Assembly: GCA_001600455.1 (NCBI GenBank)
Contig: BCKC01000002.1
Span: 5,359,682-5,423,681 of the forward strand
Reading direction: 5' to 3'
From: Endocalyx cinctus
Lineage: Eukaryota; Ascomycota; Sordariomycetes; Amphisphaeriales; Apiosporaceae
DNA length: 64,000 bases
Shown here: positions 1 to 62,455 of the stretch, one piece after another
Layout of the letters: each line of letters starts with the position of its first letter
Position numbering within the stretch: position 1 is the stretch's first letter
Translations under genes and position numbers: made by a program
Notes under the pieces: generated by a model
Database searches by the model: none
Told to the model about the DNA's origin: nothing
Seen by the model: only the letters and a program-made list of their open reading frames with translations

Positions 1-951
1 CCATATAAGGAATCCAGCGACGCTGCGGAACTAGCATACATGATGTACAAGCATGTAGTTAGCAAGCACGGAATTCCAAAGGAACTTATATCAGACCGAG
101 ATAAGCTATTTGTATCAAACTTCTTCACATCCCTCACGAAACTATTAGGCACGAAGCAGAAGCTCTCGACAGCCTACCACCCACAAACAGACGGACAGAC
201 CGAAAGAATGAACCAAACGTTGGAACAATACCTCCGTTGCTACCTCAACGAGCAACAGGACAATTGGGTAACACTCTTACCAATTGCGGAAATGGCTTAT
301 AACAGCTCAACCAACGAAAACATGAAGACATCACCATTCGAAGCAAACTACGGATACCCGATGGACAATCAGAGACCCATCATCGAAGGAGCAAACGCTC
401 AGAAAGCTATCACGGAAGTATCGAAGCTCACCAGCCTACAGCAAAAGCTAAGGAAAACACTCACATTTCTTCAAGAAAGAATGTCGAAATACGCAAACCG
501 AAAGAGAGTTGCGGGACCAACTCTCCGGAGGGGAGACAAAGTCTACCTCTACGCAACAAACATCAAAACAAAACGACCAAACAAGAAACTCGACTTTAAA
601 AAGATTGGACCATTCAAAATCGACGAAGTTATTTCGGAAGTCACCTATCGACTAAATCTACCAAAAACCATGCGTAACCACCCAGTAGTACATATCTCAC
701 TACTCGAACCAGCACCCAAAAACGCCAAACTGGAAGAACAAGTCGAAACCGAACCCAACGAACCAGAATACGAGGTCGAGAAAATACTAGAGCACAATCA
801 GCAAACCAACGAATACCTAATCAAATGGAAAGGATACCCACACAGCGAAAACACTTGGGAACCTAGGGGACATTTGAAGAACTCCCAACGGCTGTTGAAG
901 CAGTATCACCAGCAAAACCAAGGTCAAGACCTAGGGCACCCCAGTCTATGA
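1..951 (+). CDS. Retrotransposon Pol, C-terminal part: integrase end plus chromodomain (5' partial)
   Basis: The frame is open from the first base, 13 codons before the first ATG at position 40, so the protein continues beyond the left edge. The integrase core shows the second catalytic Asp in a SDRDKLF context and the catalytic Glu in the classic HPQTDGQTER block. A GPF motif (KIGPFKI, about 610-630) begins the chromovirus C-terminal module. The last 50 residues are a chromodomain with the conserved YLIKWKGY and NTWEP motifs. Integrase inserts the cDNA copy into the genome; in this clade the chromodomain is thought to steer insertion toward chromatin marks. No frameshift is visible in the part present. 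The last 89 bases overlap the antisense ORF at 863-1471. Confidence 0.93.
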   Translation, partial: PYKESSDAAELAYMMYKHVVSKHGIPKELISDRDKLFVSNFFTSLTKLLGTKQKLSTAYHPQTDGQTERMNQTLEQYLRCYLNEQQDNWVTLLPIAEMAYNSSTNENMKTSPFEANYGYPMDNQRPIIEGANAQKAITEVSKLTSLQQKLRKTLTFLQERMSKYANRKRVAGPTLRRGDKVYLYATNIKTKRPNKKLDFKKIGPFKIDEVISEVTYRLNLPKTMRNHPVVHISLLEPAPKNAKLEEQVETEPNEPEYEVEKILEHNQQTNEYLIKWKGYPHSENTWEPRGHLKNSQRLLKQYHQQNQGQDLGHPSL

Positions 952-1588: not shown

Positions 1589-2007
1589 TGTTACGAACCA
1601 ACAAACAAGAGGCCAGGAAAGTAGGCCAGAAAAGAAGAAGGCCAGACAGTAAGCCTAATCAGTGGAGCTCCACGGAACAACAACGGACCGAAAATCACGT
1701 GACTGCTACAGACTGCTACGGGAGCAAGAAGGAGAGCTACGAACTGCTCCAGGAGCAACACGGAGCCAGCAAGTTGGTAGAAGGAATGAATGGATATATA
1801 AGGATGGACATTTCCTATGTAAATAGTCAGTCATTACTTCTACAGTTATCAATCTAAGTACAACCCTTAAACAAGGTTGATTGAAGTCACAAGTAAATCT
1901 TCACACGTTTACCAATACCATACTGCTTATTAGTTTTTCACTTACTTACTTTAAGAACACCAACCCCATTGGCCCATATTACCAGTCAGGTAGTACGGAT
2001 CGTGACA
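1589..2007 (+). repeat. 3' LTR of the chromovirus
   Basis: The LTR follows the purine tract. It starts TGTTACGA (1589-1596) and ends TCGTGACA (2000-2007); these are inverted complements with one mismatch, as expected for LTR ends. A TATATAAGG promoter box lies near 1795. The right end is inferred from this short inverted repeat, because the 5' LTR that would confirm it is outside the window. Confidence 0.65.
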
Positions 2008-3283
2008 ATAATATGGATAAGATGGACTTTATAGAAGGTATAAAAGATAACGGGATTGTTATTAGTATAAAGTAGAAGTATATAATTGTTTAAAAAGGCG
2101 TTAATTGTACCTGAATAAATATTATTAAATATATTAATGGTACTAATATTATTTTATACCTATTAATTATTTTTTTAGGTATATACGTATAATAATAATA
2201 ATTTCCGGATAACGACGATATTTTATATATTAATTGAAGATTTATTATTTTACTAACTAATTAGATAAATAATAATATCGGTTTAAAGTAATTATAGGAA
2301 ATATTTATACCTGATATTTTACCTGTTAACCTTAATTAATAAAAAATATTTATTTTAAATAATTATAACTTTTATATTATTGATAAATTTATATATAATT
2401 ATTATTTAAATAAAATCTAGTTAATATTTTTATTAGTATATATTTCCTATATATTTTAATTACTTAATATAGGAATTTTTAGTACTTTAAAATTAATATA
2501 TAAACAAAAATTTTACTTAGTATATATAATATATTTAAATATATTTTTTAATAAAAAAAATTTTTTTTTCGCGTATAAATTAGTAAAAAATAAAACCTTA
2601 AAATAGAAAAATATATTAATTAACTAAAAAATAATAGGTATTTTCCCTAAAAATTAAAATAAATTCCTAAACTTTCGATTTATACGTATAATAAAAACGC
2701 TAACAATATTAAACCCAGAAATACCTAATATATTCGAAATTAACACTTTAACCAGCTTAATATCGGTTATTATATCTAAAAGTTCAAAAGAAATATATTA
2801 ATTACTTCGTACGTATTAAAAAAATAATGAAAATATTAATTTATCGGTTATATATATATTATTTTGAAAGGTTAATAAAATAATTAATAAAAAAAATATT
2901 TAAATATATAACTTAAAAATACGTAATATTTTATTAACGGAAATATTAAAAAAAATAATTATTAAAAAGCGTAAAAGGGTATAACTAGATCCTAATAAGA
3001 CCTTCGTTAATATAGTACGGGTTTATAAGGTTAAGGTTAATATAAATAAGTTAATAAGGGCTTCGTTTAATACTGATAACGATAACGAGGTTATTTCTAA
3101 TTATACGGAGTTAATAATAAAAAATAAGGTACTTAAATATATTAAGGTGATATAAATATAATTTCAAATTCAGAAATACTATCGTTATTAAAATATTTTT
3201 ATTTTCGTATTATATATTAATAAAAGCTTCATTATTTCCTAATAATTGATTTGGGGGGTGGAGCGTAAGGGAGGGTTTTGACT
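2008..3283 (+). mobile_element. RIP-degraded pogo/Fot1-like DNA transposon relic
   Basis: This stretch is extremely AT-rich with almost no open frame, as left by RIP in ascomycete repeats. Near 2960-3120 the plus strand still reads, with stops, like the C-terminal tail of Fot1/pogo-type transposases (a K-rich stretch, then LDPNKTF-like and Asn/Asp-rich residues). The right end is supported by an AGTCAAAACCC-type terminal sequence (minus strand) ending at 3283 beside a TA dinucleotide. That is the same end pattern and TA target seen in the elements at 31393 and 38532. I found no clear matching left terminus, so the left limit is nominal. The element ends inside the NLR gene to its right. Confidence 0.5.
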
Positions 3284-3285
3284 TA

Positions 3286-5254
3286 CGTTTATAATAATAG
3301 GAGATGATAATGATAACCTGCCCTTCAATAATGCCTGTAGCTTCGACACTCGATCTAGAAGCAACTGGACTATGAGGTCATATCCCTTCTCACTGGCCCA
3401 TGATAAAGCGGTCCGTTGGTTAAAAGCGCCTTTCGTATCAATTCCCTTTCTATTCTTTTGGAGGATAAGCTTAACTAGTTCATCCAGGCCAAAGTAGGAT
3501 ACAATTAATAGGGGTGTCGGCAGTTCGAGGTGGAATTTGGGTTCTTGCATTCGTATTTTCCCATATATGCTTACCCAGTTTGCACAAGCAGCAGAATCTG
3601 TATCGCAGAGTTGCAAGGCCAGAGATTCCAAGTCTGGGTCGATTTTATTATGCGCTTGACGATAATGATCTGCCCAATTGCTGGCAGCGTAGTTTAAGAA
3701 AACGAACTCGTAATTATCACCCGATTCCTGTTTTTTTTTCTCCGAGACCGATTTATTGAAATCGGTTAGCATAAGATATCCAATACATATCTCTGCAAGC
3801 ATACGGTTCGACTCTTTTAGGTCAAGCGAGTGTTGCCATTCCAAGGAAGAAGACCGAAGCTCTGATCGAACTAGGAATTCTCTCGCTGTCTGGTGGAGAA
3901 GAAAGACTTGCGAATCTTGGATAACAACGAAAAGCCCACATGTATCCCGGATAATATCGTGCAGACATTTTGGTGGTAGGAGATCTTCCTCTAGCTCTTT
4001 ATGACATCGGTGAATTTCTCTCCGGAAAGCCAGTACTATAGCCATCTCCTTAAGAAGCAATGGCCTATCTGCTGAAACAACGATGTGTAGAATCTTTCTG
4101 GTCTTTTCGGTGTCGACGCTCTTGCGAAGAATGTTGTTGTATGCTTCTTGAACCGTCGCGGGCAAGTTACGGATCCTGATACGTAAATCATTTCTATTAA
4201 AAAAGACGGCTTCCTCAATAGCGTTAAAGACTAGATACACCCAAAGGTATGTTTGATGACGGACAGTAGCGATCTCTTCATGCAAGATCTATTGCTCTTT
4301 TAAAGAAAGCTGGCGCCTTATGCATAGTTTATCTATGCGCTTCTTAATTACGATGGCGATTTCTTCGGCAATCTTATCTCTCTCTTCTTAGCTTTCCCCA
4401 CTAAGGTGTATAGTAGGTTGTGATTCTTTAAGATCCTGGAAGCCTCCTCGAATTGGACTATATTGGCGGCTCGTGACGAGGAATTTTAGGTTGTAGTCTC
4501 CCTTGCTTTTACCATAATGGTCCGTTAAAGTTTTAATAAGGCTCTTGTAGTTTTTACATTCGTCCAGGGCATCTAGAATGCAGATTGTTTCGCTATGATT
4601 CTGATGGCTGGTTGCCTTAGTAAGTATTCCCCAGAGATTGCGAAAAGATGTGAAGAGCTGCTCTCCTTGTTCTTTGAAATCTTCGAGGATATCGTCCGAG
4701 AGCAGGCCGGGCTGTTGGGTAAAGAGCTGATGTAATATGCAGCACAGAGCACCTTCTAGAACCCTTTGATCGTCAAAGTCATCCTTGAAAAAGAAATAGC
4801 ATATTGTTCTAGCAGCATTTGAAGGGAAAACGTCGTCTATGAGGTATCTTGCTAGGACGGACTTCCCACAACCCGGGTCTGCAGAGACCCATAAAAGTGC
4901 TGAGGTCTCCCTTTGCCAGTTCTGGAAGCGGGGATGGGCGGTAAACCATTCACAAGTGCCATCCACTCGCTTCGGATTCCTGTTCTTGCGATCTTCGTAC
5001 GGCGACGTATAAAGCCGTTGGAGGAGTTCGCTGCGTAATTTTGCTTTGACTGCTTCGGTGAGATGGTAATTACTCGCTGATGTCTCTGGTCTTTGGTATA
5101 CTATGACCATCATGTTAGCAGAGGCGCAAAGAATTCTTTAATTATCCTTTTAAGGCTTTAAAGGTGATATACTTTGATTGTATATATTATTTCCAATATG
5201 AATCTCGCTCTGCCCATAAGCTTGCACAGTCCCGACGTCATTAGTTGTCGCCAT
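3286..5254 (-). pseudogene. NACHT-ankyrin NLR (NWD2-like) pseudogene, partner of the HET-S-like gene
   Basis: Exon 1 (5254-5173) starts with ATG and encodes 27 residues plus one base; an intron (5172-5101, 72 nt, GTATAT donor, GCTAAC branch, ATAG acceptor) joins it in phase to exon 2. Residues 16-23 (SEIHIGNN) match the C-terminal motif of the divergent HET-S-like protein, so exon 1 looks like an R0-type amyloid trigger. The NACHT domain follows: Walker A near residues 101-108 (ADPGCGKS) and Walker B near 200-207 (CILDALDE). After it come a helical NACHT-associated region and at least two ankyrin-like repeats. Two in-frame stops, TAA (4390-4388) and TAG (4291-4289), lie in conserved sequence 33 codons apart. 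An intron spanning them would remove homologous residues, so they are real breaks. The ankyrin reading fails near 3335 and the gene is cut at 3285 by the transposon. Confidence 0.85.
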
Positions 5255-5490
5255 TGTACAGTCGTGTTAACTGGCTAGAGGACGTTGAGAATGTAGTTGA
5301 TAAGAAACACAATAGTTATCAACTACAATGTCGTTTCAAGTAAGCAAAACCCCGGCTCAGCCAGCCACTCAGGTGCTTCCTTTTTCAGCCGCACCAACCC
5401 CTCATTTGAAAATCATACCTCATTAATAATACCATTTACCGTTCAAGTGGCAACAAAAGAAATATCATCACGCTAGTACGTTTTATCACG
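5255..5490. promoter_or_regulatory. Shared divergent promoter with an 11-bp inverted repeat
   Basis: Only 236 bases separate the start codons of the NLR (minus) and the HET-S-like gene (plus), so both must be driven from here. A perfect inverted repeat, GTAGTTGATAA (5293-5303) and TTATCAACTAC (5316-5326), sits in the middle with a 12-base spacer. It could be an operator or only a hairpin. No clear TATA box was identified. Confidence 0.45.
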
Positions 5491-6369
5491 ATGGCAGAAA
5501 CATTTGGCGTTGTAGCTAGCGCCGTAAGTGTAGCAGCCCTTTTTAATAATTGCGTCAATTGTTTCGAATATATCCAACTCGGTCGTTATTTCGCTCGAGA
5601 CTACGAACAATATCAGCTCAAGGTCGACGTTGCTCGAACCCGCCTAAGTCGATAGGGCCTAGCTGTTGCCATTAACGAAGATGCTCGATTCGCCACTGAT
5701 AACCCAGAAGATAAATCTGTTCAGCAGGCTCAGCACATCTTGTTACAAATCGCCGATCTTTTCGAGGACCTTCAGAATACGTCAAGGCGGTACACGATAC
5801 GCGCGAAGCAAGATGATAATATCGCCCCCCTCGAAATCGAGAACATGCAACCAGTCGCCCAAAAGCTATATAACCGTCTTAGTACAATTGTCTGTCAGAG
5901 GCAAAAGGGGACTAGCTTTGTCAAAAAAGCCGCGTGGGCATTATACGATGGGAAAAACTTTGACAAGCTAGTAAAAGAGATAGTAGGGTTTATTGACAGT
6001 CTAGAGAAGCTATTTCCGATGAAGAAAGATGATACTTGTTCGTTGGTAGAGGTAGAAATTGAAGAGGTTGATGAAGAGTCAGATTTGAGGGCCCTGCAAG
6101 ACTGCTCCGCAGATATTGATCCAGCTTTGTCCGAGTTCATCGTGAAGAAATTACAGATGGCTGATGGAAAGAATTTTGCGAGGAAGGTTGAAAGTGAAGG
6201 GAACGGGCGAGTACGGTTCGGGGATGAATGGACTGAAGCAGCGCTACTAAATCGTGGCGTAGGTCTACTTAGCCGGGTATGGAACGAGACAGACTTTGTC
6301 GCCGCAAAAGAAACATCTGCAGTCCACATAGGAAACAATTATGGAGGCAGTAGCGTATTTGAATACTAG
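5491..6369 (+). pseudogene. HET-S-like HeLo-domain cell-death effector with C-terminal amyloid motifs (one premature stop)
   Basis: Reading from ATG 5491 to TAG 6367-6369 gives 292 codons, almost the length of Podospora HET-S (289). The frame is intact except for one TAG at codon 55 (5653-5655), at a place where HeLo proteins are strongly conserved. Codons 1-220 match the HeLo fold (for example FNNCVNCFEYIQLGR, and AWALYDGK near 148-155). In HET-S this fold forms a membrane-active helical bundle once the C-terminal prion domain templates. Codons 228-252 (with GRVRFGDEW) and 264-290 (with SAVHIGNNYGG) resemble the two HET-s amyloid repeats and sit at the same positions as R1 and R2. The divergent neighbour is an NLR with a matching N-terminal motif. 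The stop differs from TGG by one G-to-A transition, the RIP type. Expression downstream of the stop is unlikely. Confidence 0.88.
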
Positions 6370-7758
6370 GCTTTTGAAGGGCGCTTTTTTGGAAGGGGGG
6401 GAGAACTCTGGCCCGCGAGTATGCATCGAACATAACCATAAGCTGTCAAAAGACAGTTTAGCTTAGTCGGAAGATCAACTACACCACATACCTATCACTC
6501 ACGCTTGCATGGTAGTTCTTAATTATAATCGGACCCACACGCAGATGAGAGAGTAGTCGTCAGGGGTAGTAGTCTAAGCTGTGTGCCTACAGCTACCCTC
6601 CGAGTAGCCCTAGCAGGATACGTCCATATAAAGGGGAGATCTTCGCCCGGAGATAGAATAAAAAGGCCAAGAATCATTATAACTAATAATTATTTGGCTC
6701 TTAAACTATGCCCCTTGCCCACTGCTAAGCTCCGTCGACATTGTTGAAAGGTTTTAACCGAAGAGCCGAAGTAGACTTTATTTGATACCTATTCGTTAAG
6801 GATGACTGAGGACTGTTTATTATAGTGATTTAAAAGCCCCCCTGACAACATAACTGCGTTACCATATGCTCGAAGGTAACCCCATGCCCTTACAGTAATA
6901 CGATCTTAACACTCTGACACTAATAATGATATCTTGCAGTTTCGTATGGGTGAAGACCAAGGAGTCTAATTTGAGGCAAAGGGGGATGGTCGATTATCTA
7001 TCTTGAGGGCGCGTGTATTAGTCACCAAGGTGGTGCTTGTTAGATACCTAAAGCACCTAAAGAGCTCCCAAAGTCTATATACGTAGAGCGTTCGGCTCTC
7101 CTTCCCACTCAACACACGCAAAGGGGGTGTGCCCCAATTATATCACTATTCTTCTACTTAGCAAGCTCTAGTGAGCTCTCACTCAGCTGTTGACTTAACA
7201 GTTTCATTGTATTTACACACACACACACCCTTGGGAGTGATTTATAATTTAAATTAAAACTAAAATTCAACCAATTCCACCCAGTCTTTCCTATAGGTAC
7301 TTTAGATGTTAAGCTACACCGCCCATAATCTCTACGATAACTGAAAATTACGTAACAGCCGGTGAGAGCTTAAGAGACATTTTGCGGGCCGTGTTCTTCT
7401 AAACGACACGCAAGCTCCCAATTCCTCGGTCACACGCAGCTCAATGCGGCGAGTTACACAACATCGCAACCTTGTCGGCGCAGATACCCTTCCGACGAGA
7501 AACGATAGGCGGAGACCGTTTGCAAACACAGACGGGCGCTTTCGTATTGGAGAAATGGCAATCACGGCAAATCAAGACCTCCCTCAACCCCTCATCCTTT
7601 CTCCTTATTCCTACTGTCTCAATCGTCAAACAAATTCACTCAAATCTGTAGTTCTCAATATCAAATATCTTTTAGGGCGATAATTATACACGTACTATCT
7701 ATCATTGAGCTATATTCTACATACTACTGACCTACTTGAAAAACAAAAACCGACCATA
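6370..7758. other. Intergenic region with a solo-LTR-like repeat
   Basis: No convincing coding sequence. Besides the repeat at 6550-6740 it holds a short AC run near 7215. Small ORFs at 7332-7683 overlap each other on both strands, have no recognisable domains and look accidental. Confidence 0.6.
6550..6740 (+). repeat. Solo-LTR-like repeat, copy A
   Basis: The segment resembles 48973-49185 over most of its length: a GCTACCCTC block, a CATATAAAGG/TATATAAGG promoter-like box, a GGTCGAGAATCA-like block, then ATTTGGCTCTTAAA and CTAAGCTCCGTC. It ends in CGACA. The other copy begins TGTCGG, which is compatible with LTR termini. No internal retroelement sequence lies beside it. Its left end is uncertain. 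Confidence 0.55.
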
Positions 7759-9799: not shown

Positions 9800-12700
9800 T
9801 TAGAAGAGACTAAAATATTTTCGCGTGCGAGCGGAATAGCGTGCCATGACATCCCATCCTCGTTTCATAATACTGTTACGCACTTTCGAGCGACATACTG
9901 CCTGATCGCAGCTATTATCAAACCAGCCAACCGCGAGATCATCTGCCCACCAGATTTTGTCTTCGCCGTTCACTTTTGAGGTAATAAGCAACGAGGTCAA
10001 ACCATGGAATCCAATCATTATGACTGGTTTCAAAGTACAATTCTCCATGGCTGCACAAGCAGGGACAAGTGCCGTCTGTGAAATCACCATGCGATCCTGC
10101 GACGACTTTTGGTCGTATGTCATACCTGTGAAACTGAACTCACATTGCGAGTCTTTGGAATCACAGCCGAGACTGATGCCATAGAAATTGAATTGGAAGC
10201 AAGATGAAAATTTCTGAGGGCCGACGCTGATCACTGCAGCATCCTTGGGCACATCGGGACTGCTTAGGTTTGAAATAGTTGCAGGCGTAAACTGGAGCAT
10301 GAGATTTCCCGATGATGGTTTAAATGGATCTGGAGGCGGCGGAAGAACATCAAAGCCTTGGGAGAACCAGAATCTATGATATGGGCTAAACATAGGCATT
10401 GGCTTTGCGTCTTTAGGATCATCGCTCACGAGCGCCGGGAGATCATCCAACTACTCGATTATTAGTGAAACTATTTTGATAAAATCTTGGTGATCAAAGT
10501 ACTTACATTCAATGTGAAATTCCCAGTGTCTCCTGGATATCCGCAAGTGCTGCTTGAAGAGGGGTTTGACATCGTCGCAGATCCTGCCTCAGAAGAGCGA
10601 ATGGTAACGGTAGATAATGTTGTTCGGGAAGTACTGGCGGAGTCAGAAGCTGATTCTGATGCAGATATGTCTCTCGCAAATTGATATCCACCAGGGGAGT
10701 TAGTTGGAGATGGGAACGAGCTTGTGGTGGTTGCTCCACCGATATCAACTGAACTGGATGATGGGACAATAGCACACCAGGAAAGAGTCTGTGTTGAAAC
10801 GACGACAGTAGTCATGGATAAACACCCAGGCGGAGAGTCTGGGCTCGATGGAGTAGGGGAAACTGGAGGAGGCATGCTTGGCATCAATGGTAGAGATACC
10901 GATGACTCTCCAGTTGCCTCGTCTGTGCAAGAAGTGGTTGTCTCGGACACTTCAGTGGGTACGCTAGTTGTAGCATTCCATCCACTTATTGGTACTGACG
11001 AGATTGGGCCTCGTGATGCAGTTGAAGGAGACTCTGGCATAGCACCAGATTCTCCAGCTGTACTTGTTTCGGAGAACGAGGTTGAATCACTCTCAGGGAC
11101 GCCCGTAACAGATTCTAGAAAGAATAGTGTCAGATCTCATAATAAAAATTTGGAGGTTAATTGGCTGAAAATATTTCTGAAAAGGAGCATCAAAAAAAGG
11201 CAACACTTACCACCTGGATATGATGACCCCTGCACGATAACAGTCAGAGTCTGAGTAGGTTCTCCAGGCACAGTCGGATTCAGCGTAATCGTGCTTAAAA
11301 GAGGTTCAGTTTCGGTAGCTGAGCCAGAGTCAGTTATTGTCAGCGTAGGAATTACAGTGACAACACTGTCTCCTCCACTAGGTGAAAGACTCGATTCGCT
11401 GGCTTCAGTAGTGGGCTGAGATACCCCATAGCCACCGTTTTGATCAGAGTCTGCAGAAGAAGGAGTTGATGAAATACTGCTTCCACCAAAGCCTGGTGTG
11501 GTGTTCTGATCGGAACCTGGAGCGGTGCTTTCACCTGATCCAGAGCTCAGGATGCTGGTTTCAGAACCACTGCCAGGCTGGGTTGCAGAGGTGGATTCTC
11601 CATAGCTTGATATACCTGCGACGGTAGGACTACCTTCGCCGCCAGCCCCGAAGCTTGTTGCCGGCGAAAGTGTCACAGTAATTATTGGTGTGGATGTCAC
11701 TTGACCAGAGCTAGTCTCAATCTTAGAGGAACTGCCAGTTCCGGTTTCACCCTCGGGGCCTGATGCAGTCCCCTCGCTACCTGTTCCACCTGGGGAATTA
11801 GATTCTCCAGAGTTGCTAGATGACTGAGCAGGGGCTGTAACCGTCAGAGTGGGCGTAACACCGGAGTCACCGGACTCTTCAGGTCCAGAACCACTTGTGG
11901 ATTCACCAGGAACAGTCAATGTCATGGTTGGCGTAACACCTTCAGTACCTGAGGATCCTTCTTCAGGTCCACTGGCTTCAGGTGTTCCACCCATAACGGT
12001 GACTGTGAAGGTTGGAGAGCCGCCAAGACTGCTAGAGTCACTGGTCTCAGGAGAAGTGGACTGGCTGCTGAGACTTCCTTCGCTTTCTGGACCTCCAGGA
12101 ACTACAGTGTCACTTGGTGAACTTCCAGGTACAGTAAGTGTCATAGTTGGCGTTACGCCTTGGGCTCCTGAAGTATCTTCTCCGGGGACAACAGATTCAG
12201 GGCTTCCGGCTGAAACAGTGAGCGTGAGAGTCGGGTTGGTGCCTACACTACCAGTATTCTCCCCTCCTGGAGCATTGGAGCCGCTTGGAGATTTCGGAAC
12301 AGTAATAGTATAAGTTGGACCGTTGGGAATAGTAACTGTGAAAGTCGGCTCTTCGCTGCCAAAGGCAGTGAAAGATTCTGGTACAGTAGCCGTAATAGTT
12401 GGGTTGATACCTTCACTAGAATTTGGCCCAGTCATAACGCCACTGCCACTGGAAGATTGAGGAACAGTGACAGTGAAAGTGGGTCCATTTGGAACTGTAA
12501 TGGTGAGAGTCGGGCTACCCCCTTCACCGGGCGTCCCTCCATTAGGAAAGCCTGAGATGTTCGATGATTGAGGAATAGTGGTAGTGAGTGTTTGTCCATT
12601 TGGAGCGGTGACTGTAAAGGTTGGACCTTCTCCACTAGGACTCTCTCCGCCTGGAAAGTTCGAGCCGCTTGGGCTCCCAGAACTGCTTGAGGACTCAGGA

Positions 12701-15700
12701 ACGGCGACGGTGTAAGTTGGGCCACCATTGGGTGCAGTAAGTGTGAGCGTTAAACATTCAGTACTGGGACTATCTCCGGTTGGATTACCAGTGATGGTTG
12801 GGGATTCAGGAATAGTAGTGGTAATTGTTGGTCCATTGGGGATAGTAAGTGTAAGGGCCGACCCTTCACCACTAGAGCTCTCGCCACCTGGGTTCCCAGA
12901 ACTGCCTGGGGACTCAGGGACGGTGACGGTGTAAGTTGGGCCGCCATTAGGTGCAGTGAGTGTGAGCGTTAAACATTCAGTACTAGAACTCTCCCCGCTC
13001 GGGTTTCCAGTGGAATTTGGAGATTCGGGAACGGTGACAGTAAATGTTGGCCCGTTTGGAGCGGTCAGGGTAAGAATTGGACCCTCGCCTCCAGAAGTTT
13101 CACCGCCTGGACCACCAGTGCTGCTGGAATATTCAGGAACATCGACGGTGAGAGTTGGGCCATTGGGGACGGTAAGTGTGAAGGTCGAGCCTTCGTCGCC
13201 GGGGCTCTCTCCACTAGGCGTACCAGATCCGCCAGAGGATTCAGGGATGGTTACAGTGTAAGTTGGGCCGCTGTTGGGAGCAGTTAGGGTAAGAGTTGCA
13301 CCTTCGCCGTTCAATCCTCCAGTAGCGGAGGAACTTTCTTGGGATGGTGAAGTCTGTTCACTGCCCGGTGTCGAGTATGCTGGAGAACTGCTTAAAGACC
13401 CAGAAGGAATTGTTAAAGTTGGACCTCCCGGGACTGTAAAGGTTGCCAGCGGAGTTGTACTCTCTGGGCTAGAACTCTCTTCTCCGGGGCTACTTGTCTC
13501 AAGTGGTCCACCTGCGATTGTCCCTTCACCACCGGATCCATTGGCAGATTCAGGGATTGTGACGGTAAGGGTAGGCCCTCCGGAAATAGTAAATGTCGCG
13601 GTCGGATTGCTGCCCTCTCCACTGGGGCTACCGGCACCAGGAACTTCAGAACCGCTGGGAGATCCAGCGGGATATCCACCGGGGTTGGTGAGAGTGAGGG
13701 TGAGTGGTGGCAGAGCACCTTGACTACTGGCACCATTTTCGCTTGGATTGCCAGATACACTTGGAGATCCACCTTGAACAGTTGAGCCACTTTCGGCAGG
13801 GACACTAGACTCACTAGGGTAGACTGTAGTCGTGGGGAAAGTGGGTGAAGGAAGACTTTGACCCGCAGCACTTTCTGATCCATATGGCACAGAGCTACTT
13901 GGAGACCAACCAGGCACAGTAAGAGTAAGGGTTGGGCCTCCAGGAATAGTGACGGTGAGGTCAGGGCTACTCCCTGGTCCACCAAGACTACTTTCACCCG
14001 GTGTACCGGAACCGGTTGGTAAACTTGAGGGAGCAGTAGCAGTAAGTGTTGGATAAGTTCCAACACCACTTGGGCTATTTTCTCCCTGGGAATTGGAACC
14101 ACCAGGAGACTCAGCAGGTATAGTGAGCGTCGGCCCACCAGGAATTGTTACTGTTAATGGAGAACCAGCTGGGGAAATAACTGGCACGGTGATTGTCGAC
14201 CCGCCAGCAATAGTGACTGGAGAAAACGAGCTAGGGCTCTGGCCTGGTTGGTTTGGGGAACTAGAACCATTTGGAGACCCAGGAGGAAGAGTGAGAGTCG
14301 GACCGTTAGGGATTGTGACTGTGAGTGTCGGATAGCTCCCTTGACCAGTTTCACCAGGAATCCCAGAATCAGTGAGGGAACCAATCGGGACAGTGACTGT
14401 AGACCCACCTGGAATGATAATAGTAAGAGAAGAATCGGGGCTCTGACCGCCTTCTGCTGGGGCACTAGAGCTACTGGGGGGTGGCGGGGAGTTGGTAAGG
14501 CTCGGCATATTGGAGAGAGTGACTGTGAGTGTTGGACTGACACCCGGGCCCCCTTCTCCGGTTACGCTAGGACCACTGGGAGACTCGCCAGGGGCAGATA
14601 GAGCTGGTGTGGTACCCTCACCTGGGTTGCTCGAACCACTGGGATAACCATTGGTCAGGGTAAGTGTGGCAATCGGTGAACCTGTTGTATCACCAATACC
14701 ACTTGGACTTTCCCCTGGGATGTTGGTACTGCTAGGGGAACTGCCGGGTATAGAAAACATAGTGCTTGGGCTGGCGCCCTGTCCTCCTGGGATACCAGTA
14801 TCACTTGGAGAGCCACCAGGAGCAGTGTAGGTGAGAGTTGGGCTGACACCTTCGCTGCTGGATATAGCCGTATCACTAGGAGATCCACCCGGGATAGTTA
14901 AAGTTGGGTTACTTCCTTGGCCGGCTGAATTACCAGAGCCAGTGGGAGACCAGCCGGGGATAGTGATGGTAAGAGTTGGCAGCACACTTCCTCCGGGACC
15001 ACCTGCACCACCAGGAATGGTCTCGGATTCAGAAGAGCATGGTGTCGTGTCTGAAGCCGTAGGCGCAATCGTCGTGTCTTCACCTGTCTCTGAACCACCG
15101 AGGACAGTGATGGTCACATCACCGCCGCTTTCACCAGCAGGAACTGTAATAGTAGATAGACCGTTCTGGGTCGGTGACTCTCCGGAAGGTGAACTAACAC
15201 CGAAAGGCCCGGGTGAAGAAGGAGTGACAAAGCCAGGTGAAGTACTTCCTTGGCCAGCTGGAGTGCCTTGACTAGCAGGGGAAATAACCGTATATGTGTG
15301 AGTTGTCGGGGCTGAATTACCAGGCCCCGAAGGCAAGGTTACAGTGAGGAACCCAGTAGTCCATGGTACATCACCAGAGGGCCCCGTGGTGCACGGCAGA
15401 GTCTCCGTAACTGACGGTATCCATGAGCTGGAGGCGCCAACAGAAGGTCCAGAAGCGGTGGCGATGGTTGTGAAGGGCCACGAAGTATCGGGACCAGAAC
15501 CACCTTGACCAGGTGAGACAGAGATAGTGGAAATGACAGTGGAGAAAATAGTTGAGACAACAGTTGGTACGATGTCGGGGGTGAGTGTGACGAAGACAGT
15601 CGTGGGCTCAAGTGCAGGGCAAGTCTCTTGGCCAGATCCAGAGGGGCCAAAGCCAGTTCCACTGGTTGAAAAACCGCCAGAACCGGGAGCTTGAGTGTAC

Positions 15701-16339
15701 AGGGCAGAACCAGTAGTTTCAGTCGTTGGATTACCAGAGGAGGACATGACGGAACCAGAAAGATCAGTCGAAGGATTCTCAGAGCCACTACCAGATCCGA
15801 AAGGGCCCCAGGTAGGAGAACCAGATGTTGGCATACCAGACACAGAGCTCAAAGTGACAGTAATAACGATCGGTTGTGAAGGAGTTTGGTCAGTAGATCC
15901 AGAGCTGCCAACTCTAGGAGCACCGGTTGTAGAACTACCAGATCCAGGAATCACAGAACTAGGCATACCACTAGAGGAGCTTCCGGATCCTAACGATTCA
16001 GATGCCGGATAGCTATTTGAAGGAGTGCCAGGGCTACCATTGTAAGATGAGGAGGGGCTTGGATAGATAGTGATGACAGTGGCTTGTTGGGTTCCAGTTT
16101 GATCACCAGTACCAAACTCGCCAGTAGAAGAACCTCCAGACCCAACTCCAGATTCGGGACCATTATAAGTAGAGCCAGGTCTATTGATTAAAAGAGAAAA
16201 TGTCAGCATGTCAACCGCCAAGAGAATATATGATATTAACTGAACGAACGACAACTTACCCATTGCCATAATTTTGAGCTGATGACAAAGTCGCGAATCC
16301 AAAGGTACCAAGGGCGCCTAGGAGGGCGTTCCCACGCAT
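9800..16339 (-). CDS. Giant secreted mucin-like protein with Ser/Thr/Gly/Pro repeats and a conserved C-terminal domain
   Basis: Four exons: 16339-16260, 16180-11211, 11114-10507 and 10450-9800. Introns of 79, 96 and 56 nt have GTAAGT donors and phases 2, 1 and 0. The total is 6,309 nt, or 2,102 residues. Exon 1 encodes a signal peptide (MRGNALLGALGTFGFATLSSA). Exon 2 is about 1,650 residues of low-complexity Ser/Thr/Gly/Pro with a recurring beta-type unit, TLTVT(I/V)PNGPT(F/Y)TVTVPES, separated by GESPSGEG-like linkers, as in heavily O-glycosylated cell-wall proteins. Exon 4 holds a folded domain with FNFYGISLGCDS and four or more Cys, of a type I recall at the C-terminus of other fungal mucin-like proteins. 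No GPI signal is seen. Likely extracellular or wall-bound; adhesion or surface protection is only a guess. The long open frames on the other strand are shadows of the repeats. Confidence 0.88.
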
Positions 16340-44236: not shown

Positions 44237-45008
44237 TTACTCATTTACATGACGCTCGGCTCCGTAGATAATAGTATCGATCTCACTCAAGTCACGACCT
44301 AGCCGGAGAGCTAGAAAAATATAGTCTGTACAGTGTTTGATATGCTCTTCTTTGGCATTCCACGGCTCCATTGATATCCCATTGAATCCAGCCCGGGATT
44401 GCTTCCTCCAAGTAAACAGACAATGAGCGACATGCCACCCCAATGTAGTGTAGTAGTCTTTACCTTCACTTGCAAACTCGTCGATATCCAAATAGCTGAT
44501 GGGAGTTTCTTGCAGCGGCTTCCCGGGCACCCGCTCGAAGTACGGCCATGCCCCATCCTGGCCAGGTCCGAACGCGTCGAATTCTTTGACGAGATCATCA
44601 TCAATGCAGTTGTCCGGAAGCCAGTCCACGGCAAGATGGTCGTAACGGCAACCCATCGCCTGGGCTTCTTCGTCTGAATTGCCGCACCAACACTGTGGGG
44701 AAGAATCATCTCTGACGGATAGTTGGGACCACAGCACCCGCGTTACGTCAACGAACCCCCAAGTAGCTAGGAATAAGACTGGGACGAGAAAGAAGAGATA
44801 TTTTCCTAAATTCTTGTATGACCAAGGTATATGCTGTTTCCAGGCGTTTTTTCGTCTGTGCGCATCGCGCGTACGCGGCGGATTACTCTCATTGTCTTCT
44901 TTATCTGCTGGCTCCAAGAGTCTTGTGGATAAATCGTTATCCTATTACATGTCAAAAATAATAAGTCAGACAAGAAAACCTAAACGGTGTATCACTTACT
45001 TGGATCAT
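44237..45008 (-). CDS. UstYa-like (DUF3328-type) membrane protein with two HxxHC motifs
   Basis: A 9-nt first exon (45008-45000, ATG ATC CAA) followed by a GTAAGT intron with a CTGAC branch joins in phase to the main exon (44941-44237); the total is 237 residues. One N-terminal transmembrane helix (LGKYLFFLVPVLFLATWGF) precedes a lumenal domain with CWCGNSDEEAQAMGCRYDHL. Two HxxHC motifs follow, HVAHC and HIKHC, about 40 residues apart. That double motif is the hallmark of UstYa-family oxidases, which cyclise or hydroxylate ribosomal peptides and other metabolites in fungi. The rest diverges from classical UstYa, so a sister family is possible. The next gene, 0.9 kb away and divergent, is a secreted Kex2-type precursor. 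Confidence 0.7.
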
Positions 45009-57967: not shown

Positions 57968-60214
57968 TCAATCTCTCCCTTCTTCAGCGCCAACCAGACC
58001 CTTTAATTCATCTTCCTCATCATTACTCTTCTGAGCGTTTCGGTTCCTCATCCTCGTTATCATCATATCCCACCACCAACTCTTATTACTACCACCCGCC
58101 ACGCCGCCTATTCTCGACGATGACGTCGTCGCTGTTCTAGGGCTTGCGCAGCAGAACATGCATATGATAACCCTGTGCAGAAATCCGTTGATCATCAGCC
58201 TGAGCCGTCCCCGACGACAGAAAAAAAGAAAGAGAGCAACGTACACCGTGAAGATAGCCGCCAATCCCATGGCCGCGAACGCCGCCGCTGGCACGTCCGT
58301 CGCCTGGCTGGCCACGCGCTCGCGCTGCTTGTCAGAGGAGACGAGGTCGTTGAGCGGGTAGTTTAACTGGATCACCTCGCCGTTGAGCGTGTTGACCGCG
58401 TCCGTGAAGCCGATGATCGATCCGTCCGCGTCGAGCGCGGCCGCGCGCGCGAACGAGACTAGCTCGTTGTTGAGCTCATCCGGCTCCGGAACTAGGTCGC
58501 GCAGGTTGAAGCCCGTCTCGAAGCCTTGTCGGGGCGTCGTTATCAAGATATTGTCATATCCGTTAAGACTATCGACGTCGGTAGAGAGCAGCTTTATCGC
58601 TTCTGGTTAGCATCGTACGTGTGCAAACATGTCGGAAAGGGGCCGGAAACGCGCAAGAATACTCACCAATACCCATTTATCTACTTCCGTCGCTCCGTTC
58701 CAGGAAACATATACCCCCGGCCCGGTTTTGAAGTCCATGTGGGCGGCGATACTAGGAGGCCACATGGGCTTACCGACCCAGTCGCTTTTCCAAGCGCGGT
58801 AGGTGATGACCTCGGGTACGCCGTGATCCATAGCGAGGACCGGGCCGCGCTGGATATCCATGACGACCTCGCCGTCTGGCGCGTGCTCCGTGTACATGGG
58901 GTTCTGGCCCCAGGCGATGAGGGTGTTTCCGTTGGGCAGCCTCATGGTGCCGCCGCGGGAGGCGCTGATGAGTCCCTGGGGGTGGTACCACTCGTCGACG
59001 ACCTTGTACTCCATCTTCTCGACGTCGAACTCGATCTCCAGCCCGCGCGAGCACGTGCCCTCCTTGCAGAAGTCGTTGTAGATCTGGTGGTTGTCGAACA
59101 GCGTCATGCGGTTCGGCGCCACCAGCCGCGCGTTGTGTTGCCAGTGGAACGTGCCGTCCCGGCCTTCCGTCACGTCCTTCATCGTGCTCCTCTTGCCGCC
59201 TATCACCCACTTTACCTCCTTCGTTTTACCGTCAACGAGAATGATGGCGTGCAGGTGACGGTAACTAATGAGAAAATCGCCTTCACTGGTCTATGCCGGG
59301 GAGAAAAACGAAAGGAAAGCCTTAATGTTAGTGTCGAGTAAAAAAAAAAAAAAACGAAAGACGTCAGATCTTACCTTCTCAATACTGTTCATATGCCACA
59401 TATCCCAAGCCCAATCAAAATGGTAAGGACCATCTCCGTCGAAAGGCCAATACGTATCTTCGGTATTGAAATAATCTCTGGTATTGAACTCGAAGAGAAC
59501 TTCGTTGGTGGCGGGATCAACCTCTTGGGCGATACCGTTGAGGGCCTTCTCGACGCGCGGGATGCCTATGGGGGTCAGGTCGATCTCCTCCTCGCGGGCG
59601 ATGATCATGGCGACGGTGTCATCCTGGGTGATGAGGGCCTCGTGCGAGTCCGGGTTGAAGCCCTCGAACTCGCCCTTAGGTCGAACGTTGTACAGTAGTT
59701 CGTAGCGCTGGTTGTAGATGCGGATCGCCTGCCCGGAAAAAACGCCGAGCACGGGCTCGCCCCTGAGCATGTACGTGCGATGCGCTTGGGCTTCGCCGAA
59801 GTGCTGATCGGCCCAGACTAAGCTTAGGTCCTTAGACGAAATTATGCTCGGGCCGTAGCCGTCGTAACCGCCGGTGATGAAAATGAATCGGGACTGATCG
59901 CATTTTTCGTAATCGAAATGATTGACTTGGTATATGGGAGCTTTTATATCGGAAGAATAGAATGTCTGGCTTGGTTGGTCGCCGAGAGCGCCATTTTGGA
60001 AGGACTCGAGCTCGGTATATAAAGGAACATCGGCAACAACGCGGGTAACGAAGAGAGTGGAAAAGCTGCAATAACAGAAAAGTAAAAATGCGAAGGTGGT
60101 GATGTTATTACTATTACGGGTATTTATCGGTTTCGTAGTTGTAGTTGTAGCGGTTAATGTGGGCGTCGTTCTCGTCAGTTGGCTAAAGTAGGAAAATACG
60201 GAGAAATTGTACAT
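57968..60214 (-). CDS. Membrane-anchored arylsulfotransferase-like (ASST) protein
   Basis: Three exons, 60214-59375, 59290-58667 and 58591-57968, all phase 0, total 2,088 nt or 695 residues. The N-terminus holds one hydrophobic signal-anchor (FAFLLFCYCSFSTLFVTRVVA). The body shows ASST-type propeller motifs: FIFITGGYDGYGPSIIS, WDMWHMNSIEK|TSEGDFLISYRH, VIGGKRSTM, FHWQHNARLV and FDNHQIYN, then LPNGNTLIAWGQ. A second helix near the C-terminus (AFAAMGLAAIFTVYVALFLFFC) is followed by a basic cytosolic tail. Bacterial ASSTs move sulfate between phenols using a His; the fungal members have unproven activity. The two membrane helices put the propeller outside the cytosol. Confidence 0.85.
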
Positions 60215-62455
60215 GGTTACAATGACAACATCGCACCTCAAGATGTTGTCATAACACACGACCTTTTATGTTGTTTTTAAACACTTAACCGGACGAAATA
60301 GAATTAATAAAATAAAATAAAATAATAACGAACTCTAGACACTCTTTGGAAAAACAAAAGACAGAAATCGAGGAAAAGAAGAAAAATAGGACACAAAATT
60401 AAAATAAGAATCGTGGAGTTAAAAAAAAAAGAGAGAGAAAAATACAGGAAGAAATTAACGGACAGATAGGGAGACTAAATTTAATACGTGAGACAGGTTC
60501 GTTCAATTAGGTACCAGTCAGCCTACAAGTCATGTACAACTTACATGTATCAGAAAATATAATCCTTTCCACTTAGTAGGTATCCAATAATGATCCTTTT
60601 TTTTTCTTCTATAAAAATACATATATACATTGGATATACTAAATCCGCATCACAGGGGATTTACGCTAGTACATTCTTATCTGATTCCATCGTATACTTT
60701 GTATGGATCAAGATGTCTTAACAAAAAGGAATGCCTAGTGCGGTACTCCATACCGAGTGCTCAAGTCTAATTAGACGGTTAAGACGGCAAAGGGCTCGCT
60801 GATATACATAGAGTCTTCACAGCCTCATATACGTAGTAATTCGTGTAGTTATTACATATCTGAGATTATTACCTACGTGTAGTATTACAAGATAGTACTT
60901 AATATGTACACCTGCACTCTGTCGGCCGCCTCGCATGCAATCTAGTGTAATGAGAAAAAGGGATTTCCATGAAATTCGTAATCAGGTGGAAATAGCGGTA
61001 GGGGATAGGGGATGTTTGGCATTCCAAGTGAAAAGCTTATAGGGCCTTCTCAGTAAATAATACCCTACTTTATGTATGTCAGCGATCCAAACCGCGCTTT
61101 AGGGCCAAAAAAACTGGAATGCCAAGGAAAACCGCGTACATTGATATGACAGCCCTGGTTAAAGTGAGAAGTCTTTAATGAAAAAGGGAATGATATTCCC
61201 ACAATGAATATATTTTTATTATTATCATTATGTACTCTGTATTATCATTTTATTCATAGATGATTAGCTTATATCTGTATTATACTTTTTCAAGTCGAGC
61301 CGAGGAAAAGAGGGAAATGAATCAAATCTTTACGACATGTAGGCGACGATATTGGAACCCCAATACTACAATTTCATATTACAAACAACATATGTACATG
61401 CATGGATATAAGTAAGTAGTATACTATGTACCTAAGTAATGGGTATGGAGCAGCGTAGCAACTCCTGTGGTGTGACATGAACACCTATAATAAAATAAAA
61501 TAATCTCTCCTCCACGAGGCTTGGCGGCTGAAAATATCTTAACTTTTGGCTTAGGTTTGCTTACTCCGTATGCTTTTTAAGAGTCTTGCGCTCCTTTTTA
61601 ATGCCGATTTCCCGACACGATTTCCCGACATCATCGCTTACTGAACTCGAACTGCATTCCTTTTCTATTGCTCCTTCGTACACTTTACGATATTAGGAAA
61701 ATAGTCAGATGTCGTCACATTTCACTACACGTACACGTAGAATTATTAACCGGCCTGCTATACGTACTATGTATGTTATGTACTTAAGTACGTAGGTAGA
61801 TACGTAGCATATCAACGCTCATACTAAGCCACTTACATATTCCGCTACTCTGCCCCAAAGTAGTGTGAGAAAAGAGGGTTAATGATGATGACCAAATGAT
61901 AATTATTTATTTTGATGGTATATGCGATGTTGTGGTATGTGGTATGTAAGTGGTATGGAGGATGACTAGCTAATTCCGATTTTTTCAAGGTTTTATAGTT
62001 ATCTCTCCCGCACAGTACGCCTTCCTGTGTGGTGGTATTACTTTACCAAGATCCGGTCCGCCAAGCTATCCCGCTCTCTGCCTGCCTACTTGTATATGCA
62101 CTACAGGGCTAGGTTAAGGCTATCTATTGCAACCTTCCTACCATAGAAATGAAGCAACAAAAGGACTTATATACTATACTATATTCAGTATACCAACTAT
62201 TCTATCGTAGTTCCTATTTATACCCAAAACTAATATCGAACAGTATCTATGTACACATAATGTACATTAGCTATTTACCATGTATATCGTGAATAAAATA
62301 TATACATAATACTTACACTATACTACTATGCACATTACACCAACCGTCGTGCATAGCTATTTACGTAGCAAATGTTGACCCTTTCATTACTTACGCCTTT
62401 AAAGTTTACACAAGTATCCCAACTCTACGGGTACACTCGCACCTCGCACTAATTC

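What the first reader, a model, noticed from the sequence alone, without database searches (positions are those of the whole stretch)
3286..6369. A dead NWD2/HET-S-type amyloid-signalling pair
A NACHT-ankyrin NLR and a HET-S-like HeLo gene sit head-to-head 236 bp apart. Seen in sequence: HeLo domain, two C-terminal motifs at the HET-s R1/R2 positions, NACHT Walker motifs, and a motif in the NLR's first exon (SEIHIGNN) that matches the effector's R2-like motif (SAVHIGNN). Known: in Podospora the NLR NWD2 triggers HET-S through such a shared beta-solenoid motif. Inferred: this is the same kind of module, with its own variant of the motif (IHIGNN/VHIGNN), and both genes are now pseudogenes.
Basis: partly seen in the sequence, partly recalled or inferred. 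Interest (0 to 1): 0.92.

Follow-up and report, generated by a model that had tools for sequence, protein, structure and literature searches.

The report
Dead fungal cell-death switch pair
Two neighbouring fungal genes that look like a sensor and the suicide protein it would switch on by passing along a prion-like fold are both broken in this genome; the pair is of a known type, but its remains show how such a self-killing pathway can decay.

Summary
The gene at 5491-6369 (+) is a HET-S homologue: HeLo domain plus a full match to the HET-s prion domain, with both 21-residue repeats. The divergent gene starting at 5254 (-) is a NACHT-ankyrin NLR whose short inferred first exon carries one copy of that motif. 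Relatives, mainly Xylariomycetidae, keep such pairs: five by equal contig length, Xylaria longipes with consecutive gene numbers; 39 of the 120 listed NLR relatives carry the motif near their N-terminus. Both window genes are broken: TAG at codon 55 of the effector; TAA and TAG in the NLR, whose ankyrin end stops at an AT-rich, RIP-like island. The 'own motif variant' is the family norm. Elsewhere I found a relic of the effector's tail and one more receptor-like exon, before a frameshifted NLR of another type (flanks of 31 of 77 NACHT matches screened). Curiosity: effector residue 33, where Podospora's killer HET-S and prion-only HET-s differ, is also changed here. Verdict: dead member of a known kind.

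The parts
5491..6369 (+). HET-S-like effector gene, 292 codons plus the final stop, with one in-frame stop: HeLo domain and C-terminal prion-forming domain
5653..5655 (+). in-frame TAG, codon 55 of 292; homology continues in the same frame on both sides
5587..5589 (+). codon 33, Tyr; 48 of 54 aligned relatives have His (2 D, 1 Q, 1 R, 2 gaps); the residue whose change makes HET-S HET-s-like in Podospora
6166..6228 (+). R1 repeat of the prion-forming domain, codons 226-246
6277..6339 (+). R2 repeat of the prion-forming domain, codons 263-283
5173..5254 (-). inferred NLR exon 1; one HET-s-type motif (R0) at 5248-5186
5101..5172 (-). inferred 72-bp intron (GT...CTAAC...AG), phase-compatible; no transcript evidence
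3286..5100 (-). NLR exon 2: NPHP3_N/NACHT, winged-helix match and about two ankyrin repeats; in-frame stops TAA 4388-4390 and TAG 4289-4291; ankyrin end probably missing
5255..5490 (.). 236-bp divergent intergenic region
1990..3270 (.). AT-rich island (GC 0.18, composite RIP index 0.88) against which the NLR 3' end stops
1..948 (+). end of an LTR-retroelement pol reading frame (integrase C-terminal part, chromodomain)

Best explanation
The locus is the remains of a HET-S/NWD2-type (HRAM1) two-gene cell-death module. When intact, ligand binding by the ankyrin part would have made the NACHT receptor oligomerise, bringing its N-terminal R0 motifs together so that they fold as a beta-solenoid amyloid; that fold would then convert the R1/R2 prion domain of the neighbouring HeLo protein, which would insert its N-terminal helix into the membrane and kill the cell. 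The anatomy is shown here; the mechanism is inferred from Podospora NWD2/HET-S. In this assembly it should not run: the effector is cut at codon 55 and the receptor is cut twice and probably lacks its ankyrin end. The effector's lesion looks recent, since it otherwise keeps its conserved residues.
For: PF14479 and PF11558 matches; solved HET-s-family chains matched, E 1.1e-40 for HeLo and 7.8e-6 for the prion domain. R1 falls on codons 226-246, the same residues as the first HET-S repeat (PMC4344463 legend). Genome-wide PF11558 search: of 4 matches, first the effector and third the NLR exon 1. Exon 1 motif 17.0 bits with a model built only from relatives' R1/R2; best of 1000 peptide shuffles 9.7. 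Relatives: 66 effector proteins; 39 of the 120 listed NLRs (of 2775 hits) exceed 10 bits for R0 in their first 100 residues. Five effector/NLR pairs share organism and contig length, so probably one contig (from lists), one with consecutive gene numbers, Xylaria longipes CHU98_g6258/g6259; all five NLRs exceed 10 bits (11.0-25.2). Lesions. The effector breaks 3 of 48 columns that are at least 95% conserved, rank 9 of 55 sequences.
Against: No transcripts or sister strains. The effector has one substitution-type lesion, which could be a sequencing error or one strain's allele. R0 has lost the usual position-14 Ala and position-15 Arg/Lys (S and E here), and with a model of relatives' R0 motifs it scores only 12.8 bits (shuffled frames up to 6.5). 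PF17108, Pfam's 23-position HET-S family, did not list the exon. Some annotated NLR relatives (609-657 aa) end near the same point, so the 3' truncation is likely but not certain.
Confidence: 0.9

Rival explanations
1. Living module with a local assembly error or a null allele that segregates in the population: the species still has a working pair and only this strain or assembly shows stops.
For: The effector has a single stop and otherwise normal conservation; the two genes have no RIP-like composition (composite index -0.44 and -0.17).
Against: Three in-frame stops in two genes plus probable loss of the ankyrin end beside a RIP-like island; the only other effector-like sequence found is a frameshifted tail fragment.
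Confidence: 0.1
2. Het-s-like exaptation: the killer part was disabled first (residue 33, then the stop) while the prion domain stayed; the receptor then became useless and decayed, as nwd2 did in wild het-s strains of Podospora.
For: Residue 33 is Tyr against His in 48 of 54 relatives; at that column one solved chain has Pro (2wvn) and two have His (2wvo, 2wvq); H33P alone turns HET-S into a HET-s-like prion protein (PMC3531502, passages); nwd2 is a pseudogene in wild het-s strains (PMC4344463, passage and section 19).
Against: The codon-55 stop lies upstream of the prion domain and the next in-frame Met is codon 119, so a prion-only protein would need re-initiation or an allele without the stop. 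Tyr at 33 is untested; four relatives have D, D, Q or R there. The order of the changes is unknown.
Confidence: 0.07
3. The exon-1 motif is a chance peptide and the two genes are unrelated neighbours.
For: Short motif with a modest score (12.8-17.0 bits by model).
Against: 0 of 2000 region shuffles reach it; it joins the NACHT exon in frame; homologous NLRs carry the motif at the same place.
Confidence: 0.02

Closest known systems
Podospora anserina HET-S / HET-s
   Same: HeLo domain plus C-terminal two-repeat beta-solenoid prion domain of about the same length (292 codons here, 289 residues there, PMC4344463 passage); alignment to the solved chains gap-free through residue 54
   Different: Stop at codon 55; Tyr at residue 33, where solved chains have His or Pro
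Podospora anserina NWD2 and its pseudogene in wild het-s strains (PMC4344463, passages and section 19)
   Same: Adjacent divergent NLR with a single N-terminal HET-s motif and NACHT; loss of the receptor by an insertion scar and stops is already described there
   Different: Ankyrin instead of WD repeats; here the effector is broken as well
HRAM1 HeLo/NLR pairs of other fungi (PMC4518210 parts 1-2 of 5; PMC3321046 section 7)
   Same: Two motifs on the effector, one on the NLR, genomic clustering (98 of 155 in PMC4518210)
   Different: Nothing in kind; this one is degenerate
Xylaria longipes CHU98_g6258 / CHU98_g6259
   Same: Top-scoring effector and NLR relatives, 58% and 66% identical, consecutive gene numbers
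   Different: Listed as 290 and 923 residues with the HeLo/HET-s and NACHT/ankyrin Pfam domains

Membership tests
HET-S (HeLo-HRAM1 effector) | N-terminal HeLo domain (PF14479) | tested here: met
   65.8 bits before and 94.7 bits after the stop, cut-off 23.2
HET-S (HeLo-HRAM1 effector) | C-terminal prion domain PF11558 with two 21-residue repeats | tested here: met
   64.1 bits over 1-65 of 65; R1 and R2 aligned with 54 relatives
HET-S (HeLo-HRAM1 effector) | uninterrupted reading frame | tested here: not met
   TAG 5653-5655; so a broken gene of this family, not a working member
HET-S (HeLo-HRAM1 effector) | pore formation triggered by prion-domain conversion | not testable with these tools
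   needs experiment
NWD2-type NLR | one HET-s motif at the extreme N-terminus | tested here: met
   (exon join inferred)
NWD2-type NLR | NACHT domain | tested here: met
   PF24883 (NPHP3_N) 151 bits; PF05729 NACHT itself 16.1 bits, below its cut-off 26.7
NWD2-type NLR | adjacent to the cognate HeLo gene | tested here: met
   236 bp, divergent
NWD2 orthologue sensu stricto | C-terminal WD repeats | tested here: not met
   ankyrin remnant; closest relatives are ankyrin proteins
HRAM1 motif class | N3, hydrophobic 5/8/10/16/18, G19 | tested here: inconclusive
   R0 fits all (N3, V5, V8, A10, I16, I18, G19); R1 and R2 fit N3, 8, 16, 18 and G19, but R1 has Ser at 10 (so has the relatives' consensus) and R2 has Thr at 5 (class definition from PMC4518210)
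HRAM1 motif class | Arg/Lys preferred at position 15 | tested here: inconclusive
   R1 has R; R2 has A, also the commonest letter of relatives (65%); R0 has E against R/K in 35 of 39
[Het-s]-type prion-only allele | substitution at residue 33 with intact expressed prion domain | tested here: not met
   residue 33 is changed, but the stop at codon 55 precedes the prion domain

The most novel reading that the evidence does not exclude
This fungus repeated, independently of Podospora, the route from HET-S to killer-less HET-s: the executioner lost pore activity by change at residue 33 (and later by the stop), after which the receptor gene decayed. Other strains of the species would then carry uninterrupted alleles of two kinds, killer and prion-only, making a second natural prion-based allorecognition system. 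Four of the 54 aligned relatives also lack His at residue 33 (D, D, Q, R).
Probability: 0.06. Interest if true: 0.8.

Novelty: new member of a known kind. Interest (0 to 1): 0.3.

Why it matters
HET-S/NWD2 is a model for amyloid signalling from immune receptors. [Het-s]/HET-S incompatibility is said to be known only from Podospora (PMC4344463 section 19; passage of PMC3531502). A locus in a distant fungus with both partners broken, the toggle residue changed and the rest of the effector little decayed gives a place to ask in what order such a pathway dies, and whether prion-only alleles arose more than once. The second receptor-like exon, on an NLR of a different type, hints that the motif can be passed between receptor frames; [quoted passage not shown]

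Tried and rejected
Private motif variant: rejected, VHIGN is in the relatives' R2 consensus. RIP as cause of the stops: not supported for the genes themselves (composite index -0.44 NLR, -0.17 effector), only for the island beside them (0.88); the intergenic stretch (0.12) and the 3' flank 6370-7750 (0.24) are mildly positive, other window regions negative; three stops are too few to tell. Excess decay of the effector: not found (3 of 48 conserved columns, rank 9 of 55; 54 of the 66 hits were aligned, those outside 260-319 aa and P0065, P0066 dropped). Missing ankyrin end elsewhere: tblastn of three relatives against the window and the 10 kb overlapping its start gave only further matches to the same ankyrin stretch. 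Closer relation between the two R0 motifs of this genome than to others: not shown (10 identities; best outside match also 10 for the window's and 11 for the C3 one). PF17108 over the genome: 3 matches at E up to 10, none over its cut-off, the best being the C4 relic. In the flank screen L054 reached 10.5 bits, under the best shuffled frame 11.1. The 10-bit line is loose: 1 of 2000 shuffled exon peptides exceeded it, and the NLR stretches are longer. Species: not determined. Papers on HeLo with Xylaria and NLR: 3 listed, none relevant by title; other listings.

Full report
What is there. The window is C2:5359682-5423681 of a 44.76 Mb, 15-contig genome. Its top-scoring protein relatives are Xylaria, Nemania and Seiridium species, all in Xylariomycetidae; the species was not determined. 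At 5491-6369 (+) lies a 292-codon frame with one internal stop, TAG at 5653-5655. The 54 residues before it match HeLo profile positions 1-49 (65.8 bits), the 237 after it match HeLo 54-205 (94.7 bits) and then all 65 positions of HET-s_218-289 (64.1 bits). Solved structures of the HET-s family match both pieces, and reads HeLo 1-205 through one TAG in a single frame. At 5254 (-), 236 bp away, a second gene begins with an 82-bp exon, a 72-bp intron with GT, CTAAC and AG, and an exon in compatible phase (inferred, no transcripts) encoding NPHP3_N, a NACHT-like domain (151 bits), a winged-helix match (28.5 bits) and an ankyrin remnant (26.5 bits, cut-off 27.3).

The shared motif. Exon 1 holds a full 21-residue HET-s-type motif. 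A PF11558 scan of the whole genome gave 4 matches at E up to 1: the effector (66.8 bits), a fragment on C4 (27.2), this exon (22.7, E 0.004) and a place on C3 (15.5, E 0.74). With a model made only from R1 and R2 of 54 relatives, exon 1 scores 17.0 bits as a peptide, best of 1000 shuffles 9.7; as DNA, 0 of 2000 mononucleotide shuffles of the region reach 15.7 bits, best 13.4. R1 lies on codons 226-246 and R2 on 263-283.

Relatives. 66 effector homologues, the top one 58% identical over the whole query; 2775 NLR homologues, 120 listed, the top one 66%. 39 of the 120 have the motif above 10 bits in their first 100 residues. In five cases effector and NLR share organism and contig length; one has consecutive gene numbers. 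That two records with equal longest-contig length lie on one contig is my inference. PMC3321046 (section 7 and passages) reports that HET-S homologues are next to such receptors in all species it analysed, and PMC4518210 (parts 1 and 2 of 5) found adjacent NLRs for 98 of 155.

State. The NLR frame has TAA at 4388-4390 and TAG at 4289-4291 with homology running through both, and stops near 3280 at an AT-rich island with strong RIP signature (1990-3270), itself next to an LTR-retroelement end. Relative P0067 (923 aa) aligns with its residues 8 to 654; for the rest there is no separate place in the window or in the 10 kb overlapping its start. Some listed relatives are as short (609-657 aa), so truncation is likely, not proven. 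The effector breaks 3 of 48 conserved columns, rank 9 of 55: nothing beyond the stop marks it as long dead.

The rest of the genome. HeLo matches at E up to 0.001: 3, one being this gene. The C4 place is a relic: 157 aligned columns at 76% DNA identity to the effector's tail, the two repeats in different frames (L003:4934-5087). The C3 place is a peptide, MNSVGTIAAYDKSMVHVGN..., upstream of a NACHT-DUF7791 NLR; it scores 25.4 bits against 15.3 for the best of 1000 shuffles. That NLR changes frame just before Walker A, and none of its 120 listed homologues (of 905) has such a motif in the first 300 residues (best 1.7 bits). I read it as a motif transplanted onto another receptor type, itself probably broken or carrying an indel error; a GTAAGT donor and a phase-matched acceptor can be seen in the sequence, but that join is by eye. 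One search lists 77 NPHP3_N matches, some of them exons of one gene, and adds a few loci by the NACHT model. I could screen the 1.5-2 kb flanks of the best 30 plus C3: only the window (15.7) and C3 (23.4) exceed the best shuffled frame, 11.1. So I found no intact HRAM1 effector in this assembly by PF11558, while the receptor screen is partial (46 of the 77 matches unscreened).

Residue 33. In Podospora a single change, H33P, turns killer HET-S into a HET-s-like prion protein (PMC3531502, passages), and in wild het-s strains nwd2 is a pseudogene with a transposon scar (PMC4344463, passage and section 19). Here residue 33 is Tyr, against His in 48 of 54 relatives (two gaps; D, D, Q, R in four). 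The three solved chains have Pro (2wvn) or His (2wvo, 2wvq) at that column; all three are labelled small s protein, so which is HET-S and which HET-s I take from the residue and PMC3531502. Of the five paired relatives four have His and the fifth a gap. This is the most interesting lead, but Tyr may be neutral, and the stop precedes the prion domain.

Mechanism. Inferred for the intact ancestor: ligand, NACHT oligomer, R0 solenoid, templating of R1-R2, HeLo unfolding, membrane insertion, death (steps reported or proposed for NWD2/HET-S in PMC4344463, PMC3531502 and PMC3321046, passages and sections as cited). Shown here: the sequence parts and their arrangement. Not shown: amyloid formation, ligand, expression. 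In its present state the locus should be silent.

Noticed in passing
L011 (C3:168200-178190), peptide at 4891-5064 (-), NLR frame 2050-4563 (-): HET-s-type motif exon upstream of a NACHT-DUF7791 NLR of a different kind, frameshifted before Walker A; its 120 listed homologues lack the motif
   Followed up: partly
L003:4934-5087 (C4:1085233-1085386): Relic of the tail of a second HET-S-like gene, 76% DNA identity over 157 columns, repeats R1 and R2 out of frame with each other
   Followed up: partly
L012:4557-8800 (C2, about 34 kb before the window start): HeLo domain, then NACHT and many ankyrin repeats in two adjoining open frames, perhaps one NLR gene
   Followed up: no
window 1990-3270: Island of GC 0.18 with strong RIP index between an LTR element end and the NLR 3' end
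   Followed up: partly
P0031, P0038, P0048, P0052: Four HET-S relatives with D, D, Q and R instead of His at the HET-S/HET-s toggle residue 33
   Followed up: no
G000 C2:1109624-1111696: Neighbouring PF17111 (PigL_N) matches on opposite strands, one stretch with an in-frame TGA; another strong match at C4:421680 with a TAA
   Followed up: no
window 11137-16317 (-): 1726-codon open frame with no Pfam match at E up to 0.001
   Followed up: no
window 44240-44941 (-) and 59294-60265 (-): Weak UstYa-like match (22.0 bits, below its cut-off 25) and an arylsulfotransferase-like frame (50.9 bits)
   Followed up: no
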